Assembly (NCBI GenBank): GCA_002747735.1
Contig: PDQE01000030.1
Location: 1-20,015, forward strand
Direction of reading: 5' to 3'
From: Flavobacteriales bacterium
Lineage (GTDB): Bacteria > Bacteroidota > Bacteroidia > Flavobacteriales > Flavobacteriaceae
Length of the DNA stretch: 20,015 nucleotides
Shown: one piece after another, positions 8,799 through 15,444 of the stretch
How the letters are laid out: each line of letters begins with the position of its first letter
How positions within the stretch are numbered: the stretch's first letter is position 1
Translations under genes and position numbers: made by a program
Notes under the pieces: model-generated
The model's database searches: none
What the model was told of the DNA's origin: nothing
The model's input: the letters and a program-made list of their open reading frames with translations, nothing else

Positions 8799-8894
8799 GA
8801 GTGTTTTCCGGATTGTGACAAAAATTTAACGGAAAGAAACGATATTTTCGTATTTCTAACAAGAATTTGTTGTTTTTAATTTTATTAAGATTTA

Positions 8895-8953: not shown

Positions 8954-8984
8954 TTTAAAATAACAAAGAGGTTTTTTAAGTTTG
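8954..8984 (+). promoter_or_regulatory. Bacteroidetes-type promoter upstream of a candidate small RNA
   Basis: TAAGTTTG at 8977-8984 matches the -7 consensus TAnnTTTG exactly. TTTA at 8954-8957 lies 19 bases upstream, close to the TTTG -33 consensus and its usual spacing. Transcription would begin near 8990-8993 and run into the repeats and terminator at 9017-9135. No protein start follows before the terminator. Confidence 0.5.
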
Positions 8985-9016
8985 CACCCAAGACGTACAA
9001 AAAAACTAAGAAAAAC

Positions 9017-9062
9017 TAATCAACCCAATTTTTACAACTTAATCAACCCAATTTTTTTACAG
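9017..9062. repeat. Two tandem copies of TAATCAACCCAATTTTT..ACA
   Basis: Copy 1 is at 9017-9036 and copy 2 at 9040-9061, with a period of 23 bases. They differ by two extra T in copy 2. Both contain AATCAACCCAATTT (9018-9031 and 9041-9054), the reverse complement of 12269-12282. Duplicated target sites of this kind are typical of RNA-RNA or protein-RNA recognition; that role is inference. Confidence 0.75.
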
Positions 9063-9101
9063 TCTGATTGCAAAAAAAGAATTTAAAGTTATTTAATAAG
9101 A

Positions 9102-9134
9102 AACCCCGATTGTGTAAAATCAGCCGGGGTTTTT
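9102..9134 (+). terminator. Intrinsic terminator between comEC and korA
   Basis: AACCCCG (9102-9108) pairs with CGGGGTT (9125-9131) around a 16-base loop and is followed by a T run (9130-9134). No protein gene on the plus strand ends just before it, which is why a short non-coding transcript or an attenuated leader is proposed here. Confidence 0.65.
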
Positions 9135-9192
9135 CCTTTTTTAAATTGTCCAAAATTTTTACCCCTTTACTATTCTAAGCAACAATGGTTAC

Positions 9193-9221
9193 TTTAAAAT
9201 CATAAAAGAGCCTTATCTTTG
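9193..9221 (+). promoter_or_regulatory. Probable korAB promoter
   Basis: TATCTTTG at 9214-9221 matches TAnnTTTG exactly, with TTTA at 9193-9196 as a weak -33 element 17 bases upstream. The predicted start of transcription, near 9227, leaves a leader of only about 23 bases before the korA ATG at 9250. The box lies downstream of the terminator at 9102-9134. Confidence 0.55.
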
Positions 9222-9249
9222 AGCCTTATTACAGGAATTTAATTTTTTC

Positions 9250-11121
9250 ATGATAAATTTAGATATAAATAAAAAGAGAAATACCAAAAAAATTGAGGAA
9301 TTAGAAGAGGTTGTCATCCGTTTTGTAGGTGATTCCGGTGACGGTATGCAGCTTATCGGCACACAGTTTTCTGACACTTCTGCTATGTTTGGCAATGATG
9401 TAGCTACCTTTCCCAATTATCCGGCAGAAATTAGAGCTCCACAAGGCAGTTTGTACGGGGTTTCCGGTTTTCAGGTACATATAGGAAGCGTGCAAATAAC
9501 TACACCCGGAGATTATTTAGACCTTTTGGTAGCCATGAATCCGGCAGGTTTAAAAACCAACCTTGTAGATTTAAAACCCGGGCATACGTTGATTGTAGAT
9601 ACGGATGCCTTTACAAAGAAAAATTTAAAAAGAGCAGAATACGATAGTAATCCTTTGGAAGATGGTAGTTTAGAGAATTATAGAGTTATTGAATTGGCCA
9701 TGACTACCTTAACCAAAGAAGCATTAAAAGATATAGATGGCCTGGATAACAAAACGGTAACCCGAAGTAAAAATATGTTTGCTCTGGGGATGGTTTACTG
9801 GATGTATCACCGTTCCAAAGAACATACCATTGAATATTTTAAGAAAAAATTTCAATCTAAACCAAAGATTGTTGAGGCAAATACAAAAGTTCTCAACGCA
9901 GGGTATTTCTATGCAGAAACCATGGAATTGATTTCTAATTCTTATACCATTGCCCCTGCAAAAATGGCTCCGGGCAAGTATAGAATTATTATGGGAAATA
10001 CCGCTACGGCCTGGGGGTTTTTGGCAGCAGCGGAAAAGTGTAAAAAAGAATTATTTTTAGGTTCTTACCCAATTACTCCGGCTTCCAGTATTCTGCACGA
10101 ACTGGCAAAACACAAACAATTAGGTATAAAAGCATTTCAGGCCGAAGACGAAATTGCAGCTATTTCCGCCGCTATTGGGGCAGCTTTTGCAGGCAGTTTG
10201 GCGTTGACTACCACTTCCGGGCCCGGATTGGCTTTAAAAACCGAAGCTACTAATTTAGCACTCATGTTAGAATTGCCTTTGGTTATAGTAAATGTTCAAA
10301 GGGGTGGGCCGTCCACAGGATTACCTACAAAAACTGAACAATCGGATTTATTACAAGCTCTATATGGCAGAAACGGCGATAGTCCTTTAATAGTTATTGC
10401 GGCAAGCACCCCTGCTAACTGCTTTAACTACGCTTATATGGCTTCTAAATTGGCATTGGAACACATGAGCCCCGTTATTTTATTAACCGATGGCTATCTG
10501 GCAAATGGATCAGAGCCATGGAAAATAAAAACAGTAGCTGAAATGCCTGATATTTTGCCCAATTATGTTTCTACAGACCATACTAATTGGTCACCTTACA
10601 AAAGGCATGCAGACACTTTAGCAAGAGAATGGGCTTTGCCCGGCACGCCTGATTTTGAACACAGAATTGGAGGGTTAGAAAAAGAAAATGAAAAAGGAAC
10701 TGTATCTTATAACCCTAAAAATCATGAAGTTATGACCAAGTTGCGGGCAGAAAAAATAGCCCGGGTACAAAATTATATTCCGGATTTGGAAACAGAATTT
10801 GCAAAAAATGGCGACCTGTTGGTTATTGGCTGGGGCGGAACCTATGGCAGCCTTTACACAGCAATTAAACATTTAAGAGAAGAAGGGTATAAGAACATTG
10901 GTCTGGCACATTTTAATTATATCAATCCGTTACCCAAAAACGTTAAAGACATCTTAAAAAAATATAAAAAAATTATTGTCTGTGAATTAAACAACGGCCA
11001 GTTTGTAAAAGTGTTACGAGCTGCGTTTAATCAGTTTAACTTTTTACAGTTCAATAAAATTCAAGGCTTGCCATTTTCCAATGCAGAATTGACAGAAAAA
11101 TTCAAAAAATTAGCACAATGA
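9250..11121 (+). CDS. korA: 2-oxoacid:ferredoxin oxidoreductase, fused gamma-alpha subunit (KorA type)
   Basis: The protein has 623 residues. The N-terminal gamma domain (about 20-215) starts IRFVGDSGDGMQ. The alpha/pyrimidine domain follows (about 245-610), with YPITP at 273-277, the acidic QAEDE at 297-301, TSGPG at 322-326 and RGGPSTG at 351-357. This fused architecture is the KorA type that pairs with a separate TPP-binding beta subunit. The complex oxidatively decarboxylates a 2-oxoacid, most probably 2-oxoglutarate, to the acyl-CoA while reducing ferredoxin. It acts in the cytoplasm at the TCA-cycle level. Substrate preference cannot be proved from motifs. The stop codon overlaps the korB start by four bases (ATGA at 11118-11121), so the two are translationally coupled. 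No ferredoxin gene lies nearby. Confidence 0.93.
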   Translation: MINLDINKKRNTKKIEELEEVVIRFVGDSGDGMQLIGTQFSDTSAMFGNDVATFPNYPAEIRAPQGSLYGVSGFQVHIGSVQITTPGDYLDLLVAMNPAGLKTNLVDLKPGHTLIVDTDAFTKKNLKRAEYDSNPLEDGSLENYRVIELAMTTLTKEALKDIDGLDNKTVTRSKNMFALGMVYWMYHRSKEHTIEYFKKKFQSKPKIVEANTKVLNAGYFYAETMELISNSYTIAPAKMAPGKYRIIMGNTATAWGFLAAAEKCKKELFLGSYPITPASSILHELAKHKQLGIKAFQAEDEIAAISAAIGAAFAGSLALTTTSGPGLALKTEATNLALMLELPLVIVNVQRGGPSTGLPTKTEQSDLLQALYGRNGDSPLIVIAASTPANCFNYAYMASKLALEHMSPVILLTDGYLANGSEPWKIKTVAEMPDILPNYVSTDHTNWSPYKRHADTLAREWALPGTPDFEHRIGGLEKENEKGTVSYNPKNHEVMTKLRAEKIARVQNYIPDLETEFAKNGDLLVIGWGGTYGSLYTAIKHLREEGYKNIGLAHFNYINPLPKNVKDILKKYKKIIVCELNNGQFVKVLRAAFNQFNFLQFNKIQGLPFSNAELTEKFKKLAQ

Positions 11122-12131
11122 GTACTACAGTAGCGTCTTCCTATACGTTTAGAGACTTTTCCAGTGATCAGGAGATAAGATGGTGTCCCGGTTGTGACGA
11201 TTATGTTATTCTCAATTCCATGCAGCGGGCATTGCCAAAAATGGAGATAAAAAAAGAAAATGTGGTATTTATCTCAGGCATTGGTTGCTCATCACGTTTT
11301 CCGTATTATATGAACACTTATGGCATCCACGGTATCCACGGAAGGGCGGCAGCCATAGCCACAGGTGTAAAACTGGCTAACCCCGATTTAAGCGTATGGG
11401 TTATTACCGGAGATGGTGATTCTTTAGCCATAGGAGGCAATCATTTTATCCATGTACTCCGCAGAAATATAGACATGAGCATGGTGCTTTTTAACAATGA
11501 AATTTACGGTTTAACCAAAGGGCAGTTTTCCCCCACATCTCTGATTGGCCAAAAAACCAAATCATCGCCTTATGGTAATACCCAGCCTCCATTTTCGCCA
11601 GGCGAATTGGCCTTAGGAGCAAATGCCCGTTTTTTTGCCAGAATAGGCGGCAATACACCAAAAGAAATGGCTGAATTGTTCATAGCTTCCGAAAAGTTTA
11701 AAGGAACTGCGTTAATTGAAGTTTTACAAAATTGTGTAATTTATAATGACGGTTGCTTTACACAATTTACAGACAGAAATGTTAGAGATGACCAACAGCT
11801 TTTTGTAGAACACGGCAAACCGATGATTTTTGGCAAAGAAAAAAACAAAGGCCTTATATTAAATAAGCTAAAACTTGAAGTAGTTACCATTGGTGAAAAC
11901 AATATTACCGAAGACAACATTCTTATTCACGATGCCCATTCTGAAGACAACACCTTACATAATATGCTGGTAAAACTGCAATATCCGTTGGTAACGGGCA
12001 TTATAAGAAGTTTTGAAGATAATACTTTGGAAAATCGTGAAATGGCCTTAACGGAAAAAGTGAAAGAAAAAGCTGTTCACAATAATACAAGCGATTTATT
12101 TTTTAGCGGCGATACCTACGAGGTACATTAA
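11118..12131 (+). CDS. korB: 2-oxoacid:ferredoxin oxidoreductase beta subunit (KorB type, TPP-binding)
   Basis: The protein has 337 residues. RWCPGCDDY (21-29) is the family's conserved Cys motif near the N-terminus, and GIGCSSR (54-60) follows. The thiamine-pyrophosphate motif runs from GDGD (98-101) to NNEIYG (126-131), and CVIYNDGCF comes later. No separate 4Fe-4S ferredoxin-like domain is present, as usual for KorB. It forms the catalytic half of the complex with the product of the overlapping upstream gene. It is followed by 350 bases without a protein gene, containing a hairpin complementary to repeats upstream of korA and a strong terminator (12292-12343), which closes the operon. Confidence 0.93.
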   Translation: MSTTVASSYTFRDFSSDQEIRWCPGCDDYVILNSMQRALPKMEIKKENVVFISGIGCSSRFPYYMNTYGIHGIHGRAAAIATGVKLANPDLSVWVITGDGDSLAIGGNHFIHVLRRNIDMSMVLFNNEIYGLTKGQFSPTSLIGQKTKSSPYGNTQPPFSPGELALGANARFFARIGGNTPKEMAELFIASEKFKGTALIEVLQNCVIYNDGCFTQFTDRNVRDDQQLFVEHGKPMIFGKEKNKGLILNKLKLEVVTIGENNITEDNILIHDAHSEDNTLHNMLVKLQYPLVTGIIRSFEDNTLENREMALTEKVKEKAVHNNTSDLFFSGDTYEVH

Positions 12132-12246
12132 TGCTTAAAAAATTGTTAAAAATAATACACATTTAGTTCCTTAAGAAAATCTTTAGAATTAGCAGATACA
12201 TTTACACCTGAAAATAATCTGAACTAAAACTTAATTTAGTTAGACA

Positions 12247-12343
12247 AATAGATCTTCTTAAAACGAGCAAATTGGGTTGATTGCTTTTATTAGAAACAGC
12301 TTACGAACACATACACTTCTTAACGTAAGTTGTTTCTTTTTTT
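12247..12343 (+). ncRNA. Candidate small RNA or 3'-end-derived RNA downstream of korB
   Basis: The end of this region folds into two hairpins. The first has stem AGCAA (12266-12270) with TTGCT (12281-12285) and presents the loop ATTGGGTTGA. The second is the terminator at 12292-12337 plus its T run. A 14-nt segment covering the first loop (12269-12282) is perfectly complementary to both repeat copies at 9018-9031 and 9041-9054. A short recognition loop followed by an intrinsic terminator is the classic layout of a bacterial small RNA. A near-consensus -7 box (TAATTTAG, 12232-12239, one mismatch) would start the RNA near 12247; otherwise it may be released from the korAB transcript by processing. 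The 5' end is therefore uncertain and the function is inference. Confidence 0.45.
12292..12343 (+). terminator. Strong intrinsic terminator of the korAB operon
   Basis: A 14-bp stem pairs 12292-12305 (AGAAACAGCTTACG) with 12324-12337 (CGTAAGTTGTTTCT) with one G-U wobble. The loop is 18 bases and a T run follows (12337-12343). It ends the korAB transcript and/or the candidate small RNA. Confidence 0.85.
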
Positions 12344-12397
12344 ATGGCTGCTTCTAAAATTTTATCCCTAAAATTGTTGATAACTTTACATATTTAA

Positions 12398-14422
<2,025 letters not shown>

Positions 14423-14517: not shown

Positions 14518-15444
14518 ATGAAAATAACAGTAGTAGGAGCAGGTGCTGTGGGTGCCAGTTGTGCCGAGTACATTGCCATGAAAAATTTTGCCGCTGAAGT
14601 GGTAATTTTAGATATTAAAGAAGGTTACGCCGAAGGGAAAGCTATGGATTTAATGCAAACCGCTTCGCTTAATTCATTCGACACAAAAATTGTAGGAACA
14701 ACTAATGACTACAGCAAAACTGCTAACAGTAACATCTGTGTTATTACCTCCGGAGTGCCCAGAAAACCGGGAATGACCCGTGAAGAACTTATTGGTATAA
14801 ATGCCGGTATTGTAAAAAATGTTTCAGAAAATTTAATTAAATATTCGCCTGATACTATTTTAATTGTGGTATCCAATCCTATGGACACTATGGCATATTT
14901 AGCTCATAAAGCCACTAATTTACCAAAAAACAGAATTATAGGTATGGGTGGTGCTTTAGACTCCGCTCGTTTTAAGTACAGGTTGGCAGAAGCCTTGGGT
15001 GCTCCTATATCTGACGTAGATGGCATGGTGATAGGCGGCCATTCTGATACAGGCATGATACCACTTACCCGCTTGGCAACCAGAAATAGCGTGTTGGTAA
15101 GTAAATTTATTGATAATGAGCGGCTAAAACAAGTAAAAGAAGATACAAAAGTAGGTGGTGCTACACTTACTAAGCTATTAGGTACTTCAGCTTGGTATGC
15201 CCCCGGAGCAGCAGTGAGCAGTTTGGTACAGGCTATAGCTTGTGACCAGAAGAAAATGTTTCCATGTTCTGTGTTACTGGAAGGAGAATACGGCTTAAAT
15301 GACATTTCAATTGGTGTGCCTGTAATATTAGGCAAAAAAGGTATTGAAAAAATAGTGGAGATAGAATTAACAGATGATGAAAAAGCCCAATTAAAAGAAA
15401 GTGCAGCTGCAGTTAGAAAAACTAATGGGTTATTAGATGCATAA
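14518..15444 (+). CDS. mdh: Malate dehydrogenase (LDH-like, NAD-dependent)
   Basis: The protein has 308 residues. The Rossmann motif VGAGAVG lies at 6-12, and Asp32 at the end of the second strand indicates NAD. The mobile loop VPRKPGMTREE carries substrate-binding Arg82 and Arg88, where Arg rather than Gln at 82 marks malate over lactate specificity. NPMD contains Asn120, and Asp148, Arg151 and catalytic His175 (GGHSD) are present. The length and motifs fit the LDH-like MDH group found in Bacteroidetes. It interconverts malate and oxaloacetate in the cytoplasm, one TCA-cycle step that sits naturally near korAB. It lies 95 bases after gyrB with only a weak hairpin between, so partial co-transcription is possible. 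Confidence 0.95.
   Translation: MKITVVGAGAVGASCAEYIAMKNFAAEVVILDIKEGYAEGKAMDLMQTASLNSFDTKIVGTTNDYSKTANSNICVITSGVPRKPGMTREELIGINAGIVKNVSENLIKYSPDTILIVVSNPMDTMAYLAHKATNLPKNRIIGMGGALDSARFKYRLAEALGAPISDVDGMVIGGHSDTGMIPLTRLATRNSVLVSKFIDNERLKQVKEDTKVGGATLTKLLGTSAWYAPGAAVSSLVQAIACDQKKMFPCSVLLEGEYGLNDISIGVPVILGKKGIEKIVEIELTDDEKAQLKESAAAVRKTNGLLDA

What the first reader, a model, noticed from the sequence alone, without database searches (positions are those of the whole stretch)
8992..12343. korAB is bracketed by two complementary RNA elements: a possible self-regulating RNA circuit
The sequence shows AATCAACCCAATTT twice upstream of korA (9018-9031, 9041-9054) and its exact 14-nt complement once downstream of korB (12269-12282). 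The downstream copy largely fills a hairpin loop (ATTGGGTTGA) that sits seven bases before a strong terminator. The upstream copies sit between a promoter box and another terminator. A single 14-mer complement somewhere in 20 kb is not surprising, but a duplicated one restricted to the two short intergenic flanks of one operon, each beside a terminator, is. Inference: an RNA from the 3' end of the operon pairs with the upstream RNA or leader and tunes central carbon metabolism.
Basis: partly seen in the sequence, partly recalled or inferred. Interest (0 to 1): 0.72.

Follow-up and report, generated by a model that had tools for sequence, protein, structure and literature searches.

The report
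Conserved flavobacterial small RNA beside gyrB
The sequence noticed after korB is part of an apparently undescribed, conserved family of small hairpin RNAs that sits in front of the gyrase gene in related bacteria, probably switched on by a two-component sensor system, and a second short RNA in this genome carries two perfect docking sites for its loop, which may make it a decoy.

Summary
AATCAACCCAATTT occurs at 9018 and 9041 and its exact complement at 12269-12282.

Positions 12263-12343 (hairpin, loop AUUGGGUUGA, then a terminator) belong to an RNA family with no Rfam match. A covariance model finds it in 14 of 17 genomes of the nearest sampled genus, in 1-4 strong copies. The 14-mer is exact in 30 of 34 aligned copies while the stems covary. 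Copies lie in asnB-RR-HK-[box-PepSY-like gene-RNA]n-gyrB-mdh, directly upstream of gyrB in 13 of those genomes. The window keeps box, RNA, gyrB and mdh, with korAB where the RR, HK and PepSY genes would be. korAB in 26 relatives has neither element.

The upstream tandem sites lie in a separate predicted ~150-nt transcript that ends before korA's own promoter box. They can pair with the conserved loop (net -13 kcal/mol; 0 of 1000 shuffles), but no searched relative has them. Best reading: an RR-controlled small RNA (well supported as a family) with a lineage-specific decoy (tentative).

The parts
8977..8984 (+). TAAGTTTG, exact match to the Bacteroidota primary sigma -7 box TAnnTTTG; predicted promoter of an orphan transcript
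   Evidence: consensus from PMC9723704 (passages)
8988..9140 (+). predicted short non-coding transcript (candidate decoy RNA); ends inferred from promoter box and terminator, not measured
9017..9033 (+). first copy of the loop-complementary site (14-nt core 9018-9031)
9040..9056 (+). second copy of the loop-complementary site (14-nt core 9041-9054)
9100..9142 (+). predicted terminator of the orphan transcript (ACCCCG...CGGGGTTTTT)
   Evidence: fold; not reported by the simple scan, whose loop limit is 8
9214..9221 (+). TATCTTTG, predicted korAB promoter box, downstream of the upstream element
   Evidence: a TAnnTTTG box 44-69 nt before the aligned korA start occurs in 17 of 25 relatives with upstream sequence
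9250..11121 (+). korA, 2-oxoacid:acceptor oxidoreductase subunit alpha
11118..12131 (+). korB, 2-oxoacid:acceptor oxidoreductase subunit beta
12170..12204 (+). box CTTAAGAAAATCTTTAGAAT-N7-TACATTTA: 11-bp direct repeat joined to a -7-like box, as upstream of most family copies
   Evidence: 28 of the 34 copies of A4, window included, have a box by the pattern; outside this family's units no hits in about 1.69 Mb of other loci
12206..12343 (+). predicted small RNA (also the 3' end of korAB if transcription reads through)
   Evidence: ends inferred
12265..12286 (+). conserved hairpin, loop AUUGGGUUGA at 12271-12280
12269..12282 (+). near-invariant 14-mer (loop plus two inner stem pairs), complementary to 9018-9031 and 9041-9054
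12292..12343 (+). terminator stem and T run of the RNA family
12435..12442 (+). TATATTTG, predicted gyrB promoter box
12482..14422 (+). gyrB, the conserved downstream neighbour of the RNA
14518..15444 (+). malate/lactate dehydrogenase gene (mdh), also conserved next to gyrB

Best explanation
Positions 12170-12343 are a stand-alone copy of a conserved, multi-copy RNA family of one flavobacterial genus and its kin. Shown by comparison: the same hairpin (loop AUUGGGUUGA, nearly invariant) plus covarying terminator forms the 3' end of tandem small PepSY-like genes next to an OmpR-type response regulator and histidine kinase, and in several genomes also follows a shared promoter box with no gene between, just upstream of gyrB. 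Inferred: the response regulator drives each unit from the box; the hairpin is stable and its G-rich loop is the pairing seed of a trans-acting small RNA, working like CpxQ from cpxP. In the window the sensor and PepSY genes are absent from this place and korAB stands there, so korAB may simply share the RNA's terminator. Tentative: the separate short RNA at 8988-9140, with two tandem perfect sites for the loop, is a lineage-specific decoy or target of this RNA.
For: The only exact 14-mers in 204 fetched loci (1.46 Mb) were two copies upstream of gyrB in G401, the top GyrB match (86%) among 397 sampled family genomes. A covariance model built from the window and those two copies scores 44-102 bits in 14 of 17 genus genomes. 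In 34 copies (31 distinct) 99.3% of pair cells are standard, 8 of 19 pairs change on both sides, and 0 of 500 shuffles reach four of the five measures (7 of 500 reach the fifth, pair types). The 14-mer is exact in 30 of 34 while the terminator loop varies. Gene order RR-HK-[box-PepSY-RNA]n-gyrB-mdh recurs; the RNA is directly upstream of gyrB in 13 genomes (in one, G497, that copy is a weak 36-bit one). The box has no hits outside these units. Pairing of the two window RNAs: hybrid -17.0, net -13.1 kcal/mol, best of 39 exact complementary stretches of 10 nt or more, and 0 of 1000 shuffles.
Against: No transcript is measured. The decoy has no convincing homologue in 17 genus genomes and tandem sites are not enriched there (3 hits, 3 in the reversed control). 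Across the 17 genomes the 11-mer TCAACCCAATT occurs 106 times, 30 of them hairpin copies, against 58 for the reversed control, so no clear genome-wide excess of targets; 15 of 16 classed non-hairpin sites lie in open frames. A looser duplex measure gave 7 of 1000 shuffles and only about 20th rank. An invariant loop could equally bind a protein. The covariation alignment was fitted to the model. The window's own box ends TACATTTA, one base off TAnnTTTG, and none of the window's annotated genes is a response regulator or kinase.
Confidence: 0.68

Rival explanations
1. The hairpin-terminator is a conserved mRNA 3' end that binds an RNA-binding protein or protects transcripts; it does not act in trans, and the upstream 14-nt complement is coincidence plus a local tandem duplication.
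For: Most copies follow PepSY-like genes. There is no clear excess of complementary sites in relatives. The upstream repeats are lineage-specific as far as searched. A complement of 14 nt or more between korAB flanks is not very rare.
Against: In G401, G490, G491, G493, G130, G487 and the window a box is followed by the hairpin with no gene mapped between. The loop, not only the stem, is nearly invariant. The window's complementary stretch is centred on the loop and expected only about 0.001 times in the window.
Confidence: 0.25
2. One reading: the 3' end of korAB mRNA pairs with the korA leader or an upstream RNA and tunes korAB.
For: Exact complementarity in both flanks; no other terminator is evident between korB and 12292, so korAB mRNA probably carries the hairpin (inference).
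Against: The upstream sites lie before a terminator and before korA's own promoter box. korAB in 26 relatives has neither element. Of the 14 genus genomes with the RNA, 8 show no strong korB match; in the other 6, korAB and the RNA are on different contigs (5) or about 150 kb apart (1).
Confidence: 0.05
3. The three AATCAACCC words are DNA binding sites of a transcription factor.
For: Direct repeat with 23-bp spacing near promoters.
Against: In the aligned family copies the word sits inside an RNA hairpin next to a terminator, with compensating stem changes, and most units have a different, separate box at their promoter.
Confidence: 0.02

Closest known systems
CpxQ, the small RNA from the 3' end of cpxP in E. 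coli (PMC4817254, abstract and outline seen)
   Same: The promoter most strongly induced by a two-component envelope stress response makes an mRNA for a small envelope protein whose 3' end yields a small RNA. In the relatives here RR, HK and small-protein gene are neighbours, as cpxR, cpxA and cpxP are (the latter recalled).
   Different: No sequence relation tested; here the module is repeated in tandem after several PepSY-like paralogues and also stands alone under the same box; different phylum; no transcript shown.
FopS/GibS paralogous small RNAs of Bacteroides thetaiotaomicron (PMC11697453, passages seen)
   Same: Multi-copy paralogous small RNAs in Bacteroidota with a shared seed, one of 14 being 3'-UTR derived; induced by bile salts.
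   Different: FopS copies are mostly intergenic (9) or antisense (4) and carry the conserved seed in the 5' part; here the conserved stretch is a hairpin loop beside the terminator and most copies cluster at one two-component locus. Sequence relation not tested.
Rfp18 of Flavobacterium psychrophilum (PMC9723704, passages seen)
   Same: Structured small RNA conserved in Flavobacterium that is predicted to pair with its targets through one stem-loop.
sRNA sponges such as SroC (recalled)
   Same: A short RNA carrying sites complementary to another RNA's seed.
   Different: Here the sponge is only predicted, with two tandem sites, and was not found in relatives.

Membership tests
Any Rfam 15 family | Match at or above the gathering score | tested here: not met
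   Searches (window; 5 of the family loci): none; (window 12100-12500, E up to 5): only 17.2-bit and 12.5-bit hits to a microRNA and a lncRNA model
The hairpin RNA family described here | Conserved hairpin with loop AUUGGGUUGA plus adjoining terminator | tested here: met
   Window copy 84.8 bits, E 1.9e-17; it was one of three seed sequences, so it matches by construction; the independent support is the 14-mer hit in G401 and the 31 further copies of A4
The hairpin RNA family described here | Position directly upstream of gyrB-mdh | tested here: met
   Window and 13 of 17 genus genomes; in G497 by a weak 36-bit copy; mdh lies beyond the contig end in G495 (L270)
CpxQ-type two-component-regulated 3'-end small RNA | 3' end of an mRNA for a small envelope protein beside RR and HK | tested here: met
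   Met in relatives (PepSY_like PF11396 stays below its cut-off, 18-23 bits against 28.3, E 0.003-0.0001, in the 3 proteins scanned); not met in the window itself, whose upstream neighbour is korB
CpxQ-type two-component-regulated 3'-end small RNA | Promoter controlled by the neighbouring response regulator | tested here: inconclusive
   Shared 11-bp direct-repeat box next to TAnnTTTG; binding not shown
CpxQ-type two-component-regulated 3'-end small RNA | Discrete small RNA that base-pairs with mRNAs in trans | not testable with these tools
   No RNA-seq; target excess unclear
sRNA sponge (8988-9140) | Extended complementarity to the partner's seed in an accessible stretch | tested here: met
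   the looser measure is less favourable
sRNA sponge (8988-9140) | Titrates the partner in the cell | not testable with these tools
   Needs expression and mutants
icaR-type 5'-3' UTR pairing within one mRNA (recalled) | Both complementary sites lie in the same mRNA | tested here: not met
   A terminator and korA's own promoter box separate the upstream sites from korA; by sequence only
FopS/GibS | Shares the R1 seed sequence | not tested
   FopS sequence not fetched

The most novel reading that the evidence does not exclude
An undescribed family of two-component-controlled hairpin small RNAs, made both as 3' ends of tandem PepSY-like envelope genes and as stand-alone genes before gyrB, with a nearly invariant loop as seed; in the window lineage the sensor and envelope genes were lost from the locus, korAB moved in, and a new decoy RNA with two tandem perfect anti-loop sites arose on the other side of korAB.
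Probability: 0.38. Interest if true: 0.75.

Novelty: new variant of a known kind. Interest (0 to 1): 0.6.

Why it matters
Small RNAs of Flavobacteriia are little known. This gives a family with a clear locus, a predicted regulator, a nearly invariant loop and a covarying terminator, so regulator, RNA and targets can be tested together. It would add a Bacteroidota counterpart to the Cpx-CpxQ arrangement, repeated in tandem, and a possible case of a decoy RNA newly arisen against a conserved small RNA. It also shows how a true partial observation (complementary flanks) was attached to the wrong operon until relatives were compared.

Tried and rejected
korAB as the conserved context: the flanks of 26 relatives' korAB loci were examined (L001-L012, L191-L204; L202 has no upstream sequence); none has the elements. 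By eye the upstream neighbour is often a divergent ferredoxin gene and the downstream one often nuoA; these two names were recognised by me and not run through a family search. Homology search of the upstream element in 299 family genomes gave weak hits in 84; the ten loci I printed look like coding sequence, AT-rich noise or unrelated terminators (by eye). In 17 genus genomes 6 had weak hits, all within query positions 108-160, the part after the repeats (not inspected further). Tandem-site pattern: 3 of 397 family genomes hit, with 8-nt or 24-nt period repeats; 3 of 17 genus genomes, all in open frames. comEC flanks of relatives: 11 loci printed, another neighbour and no such element by eye. 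The sigma-70 and terminator scan was uninformative for this phylum. Unrestricted duplexfold ranking put the korB 3' region about 20th in the window once the two self-antisense rows are set aside, with 7 of 1000 shuffles as good, because long AT-rich hybrids dominate; the accessibility-corrected ranking of exact stretches put it first. Both are reported. A protein-site reading of the repeats was considered and dropped once the family appeared.

Outside the genus, 24 of the 38 genomes with a hit had only weak ones (E about 1e-5 to 0.05, at most 41.9 bits). Of the 16 such loci viewed (L251-L266), 9 carry a different 3' element after a gene; the other 7 are mixed, two with GGGTTGA-like loops. They were not counted as members. 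For alignment A4, 15 of the 49 matches (E above 1e-7) were dropped; many are reverse-strand shadows, but some forward-sense ones (L272 5491-5556, L279 5410-5476, perhaps L279 5076-5163) may be diverged real copies. One of the query proteins meant for (the gene between asnB and RR) was out of frame and was dropped, so that gene is not mapped.

Paper searches for a published description listed none, judging from titles and abstract starts; only open-licence PMC papers were searched, so this is no proof that it is unpublished.
Full report
Observation. The upstream copies form a 17-nt direct repeat 23 nt apart. The complement covers loop 12271-12280 of a hairpin plus two inner stem pairs; a strong terminator follows. 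On simple chance models the match is only mildly surprising: 2.6-5.4% of simulated flank pairs, 26 of 1751 cross-locus pairs of real flanks, and one of five long-distance exact 14-nt inverted pairs in the window.

Transcription layout. The primary -7 box of Flavobacterium is TAnnTTTG (PMC9723704, passages). Exact matches on the + strand between genes around korAB lie at 8977, 9214 and 12435, fitting an orphan transcript, korAB and gyrB. A GC-rich hairpin with a T run at about 9100-9142 separates the first from korA. So the repeats are predicted to lie in a short, separate, non-coding transcript, not in a korA leader. Relatives carry a TAnnTTTG box 44-69 nt before the aligned korA start in 17 of 25 cases with upstream sequence.

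Organism. No genome is held for the window. GyrB is closest (86%) to G401 among 397 sampled family genomes. G490 of the same genus is probably Aureibaculum luteum (equal contig length).

korAB is not the conserved context. In 26 korAB loci from relatives neither flank carries the 14-mer; the nearest is one 2-mismatch word in L199. Only 6 of the 17 genus genomes show a strong korB match (E 1e-150 or better), and in none is it beside the RNA: different contigs in 5, about 150 kb away in 1.

The downstream element is an RNA family. Among 204 fetched loci (1.46 Mb) exact 14-mers occurred only twice, both upstream of gyrB in G401. The window and G401 copies share hairpin and terminator. A model from these three (R1) searched against 248 relatives of G401 gave hits at E 0.05 or better in 38; all of 44 bits or more (44-102) are in 14 of the 17 genus members, 1-4 copies each; G485, G488 and G496 had none under the stricter filter used (genus list). 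Thirty-four copies from 18 sources, window included, give 31 distinct rows: 99.3% of cells paired, 8 of 19 pairs with changes on both sides, 28 such cells, 0 of 500 shuffles as high for these and for the covariation score, 7 of 500 for the number of pair types; slid structures fall to 27-60% paired. The 11-pair terminator stem is fully paired with five covarying pairs. The alignment was fitted to the model, which leans towards the structure. The 14-mer is exact in 30 of 34 and the 18-mer GCAAATTGGGTTGATTGC in 29 of 34; the two G487 copies share one variant loop. Rfam has no match.

Locus. Relatives show asnB, an OmpR-type response regulator, a histidine kinase (families tested in G401; elsewhere by similarity), then one or more units of box, PepSY-like small protein gene and RNA, then gyrB and mdh. 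RNA directly upstream of gyrB: 13 genomes (L205, L267-L270, L272, L273, L277-L282), in L272 by a weak 36-bit copy. By the pattern used, the box CTT(A/T)AGA...CTTTAGA-N-TAnnTTT(G/A) lies upstream of 28 of the 34 copies, window included; the six without are in L271, L276, L278 (one of two), L279 and L280 (two) (counted). In G401, G490, G491, G493, G130 and G487 one box is followed by the RNA with no gene mapped between, and G492 has a diverged box in such a place by eye. Across about 1.69 Mb of other loci the box pattern hit only re-fetched pieces of these same units (18 hits). The window has the box at 12170-12204, the RNA, gyrB and mdh, but comEC and korAB in place of asnB, RR, HK and PepSY. 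Its RNA is therefore best read as the gyrB-proximal stand-alone copy, now also at the 3' end of korAB.

The upstream element. No convincing homologue was found in 299 family genomes (ten weak hits viewed) or 17 genus genomes, and its double-site pattern gave only period repeats in 3 of 397 family genomes and no enrichment in the genus (3 hits against 3 in the control). Its pairing with the RNA is strong: hybrid -17.0, net -13.1 and -11.2 kcal/mol for the two copies, the first being the best of 39 exact complementary stretches of at least 10 nt in the window; 0 of 1000 shuffles reach the observed net. A less strict duplex measure gave 7 of 1000 and about 20th rank. The word is expected 0.0007-0.0013 times in the window and about 0.0001 times in that intergenic region. 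Among relatives, 15 of 16 classed non-hairpin 11-mer sites lie in open frames and 1 does not (30 loci given, 5 hairpins, 9 not classed), so two tandem sites in a non-coding stretch is unusual. Genome-wide, 106 sites (30 of them hairpins) against 58 for the reversed control is at most a slight excess.

Mechanism. Most likely: envelope or similar stress, sensed by the HK, activates the RR; the RR binds the 11-bp direct repeats; PepSY-like mRNAs and stand-alone RNAs are made; the conserved hairpin-terminator is the stable part and its loop pairs with targets that carry UCAACCC-like sequence. In the window organism the regulator would have to lie elsewhere. The 8988-9140 RNA, if made, could bind two RNA molecules and titrate them. 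Shown: family, covariation, locus and box conservation, complementarity. Inferred: transcription, regulation, trans action, decoy function.

Comparison. In design it resembles CpxQ (PMC4817254, abstract and outline) and, in being multi-copy in Bacteroidota, FopS (PMC11697453, passages); membership in neither is claimed. Verdict: observation right, context misread, underlying RNA family real and apparently undescribed (within the searches).

Noticed in passing
L001-L012, L191-L204, about 79-104 nt upstream of the aligned korA start: A palindrome like TGAYnnnnRTCA (most often TGACAAAAGTCA, 9 loci), resembling FNR/CRP-type sites (recalled), precedes korA: the loose form TGAN6TCA occurs within 220 nt in 22 of 25 relatives and in that distance range in 21, but not in the window's korA upstream region. 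It suggests a redox-type regulator of the korAB/ferredoxin divergent promoter, absent in the window.
   Followed up: partly
L251-L257, L261, L264 (match near position 1501): In nine other flavobacterial genomes a different 3' element, TTTTGGTTGGTTA-like followed by a GAAAC(C/A/T)G terminator, sits right after a conserved gene whose protein, read in four of them, looks like a lipoprotein. It may be another 3'-end RNA family.
   Followed up: partly
L265 and L266 (match near position 1501): Two genomes outside the genus have hairpin-like stretches with GGGTTGA-like loops before a terminator-like stem; possible distant relatives of the family (by eye).
   Followed up: no
L277 4649-4726 and 5949-6026: Both G487 copies carry the same altered loop (ATTCGGTTAA) and altered terminator stem, as if copies within a genome evolve together.
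   Followed up: no
L205 6000-6140; L267 6921-7061; L268 6192-6332; L269 5974-6114: A 47-residue ORF weakly similar to the C-terminal part of the PepSY-like protein has its own box between the last PepSY unit and the stand-alone RNA.
   Followed up: no
L309 around position 1500 (reverse strand): The only site TCAACCCAATT outside open frames among 16 classed sites in relatives (G492); a possible target of the RNA.
   Followed up: no
window 8808-8822 and 9105-9119: A degenerate 15-nt direct repeat links the comEC upstream region with the terminator of the orphan transcript; probably chance.
   Followed up: no
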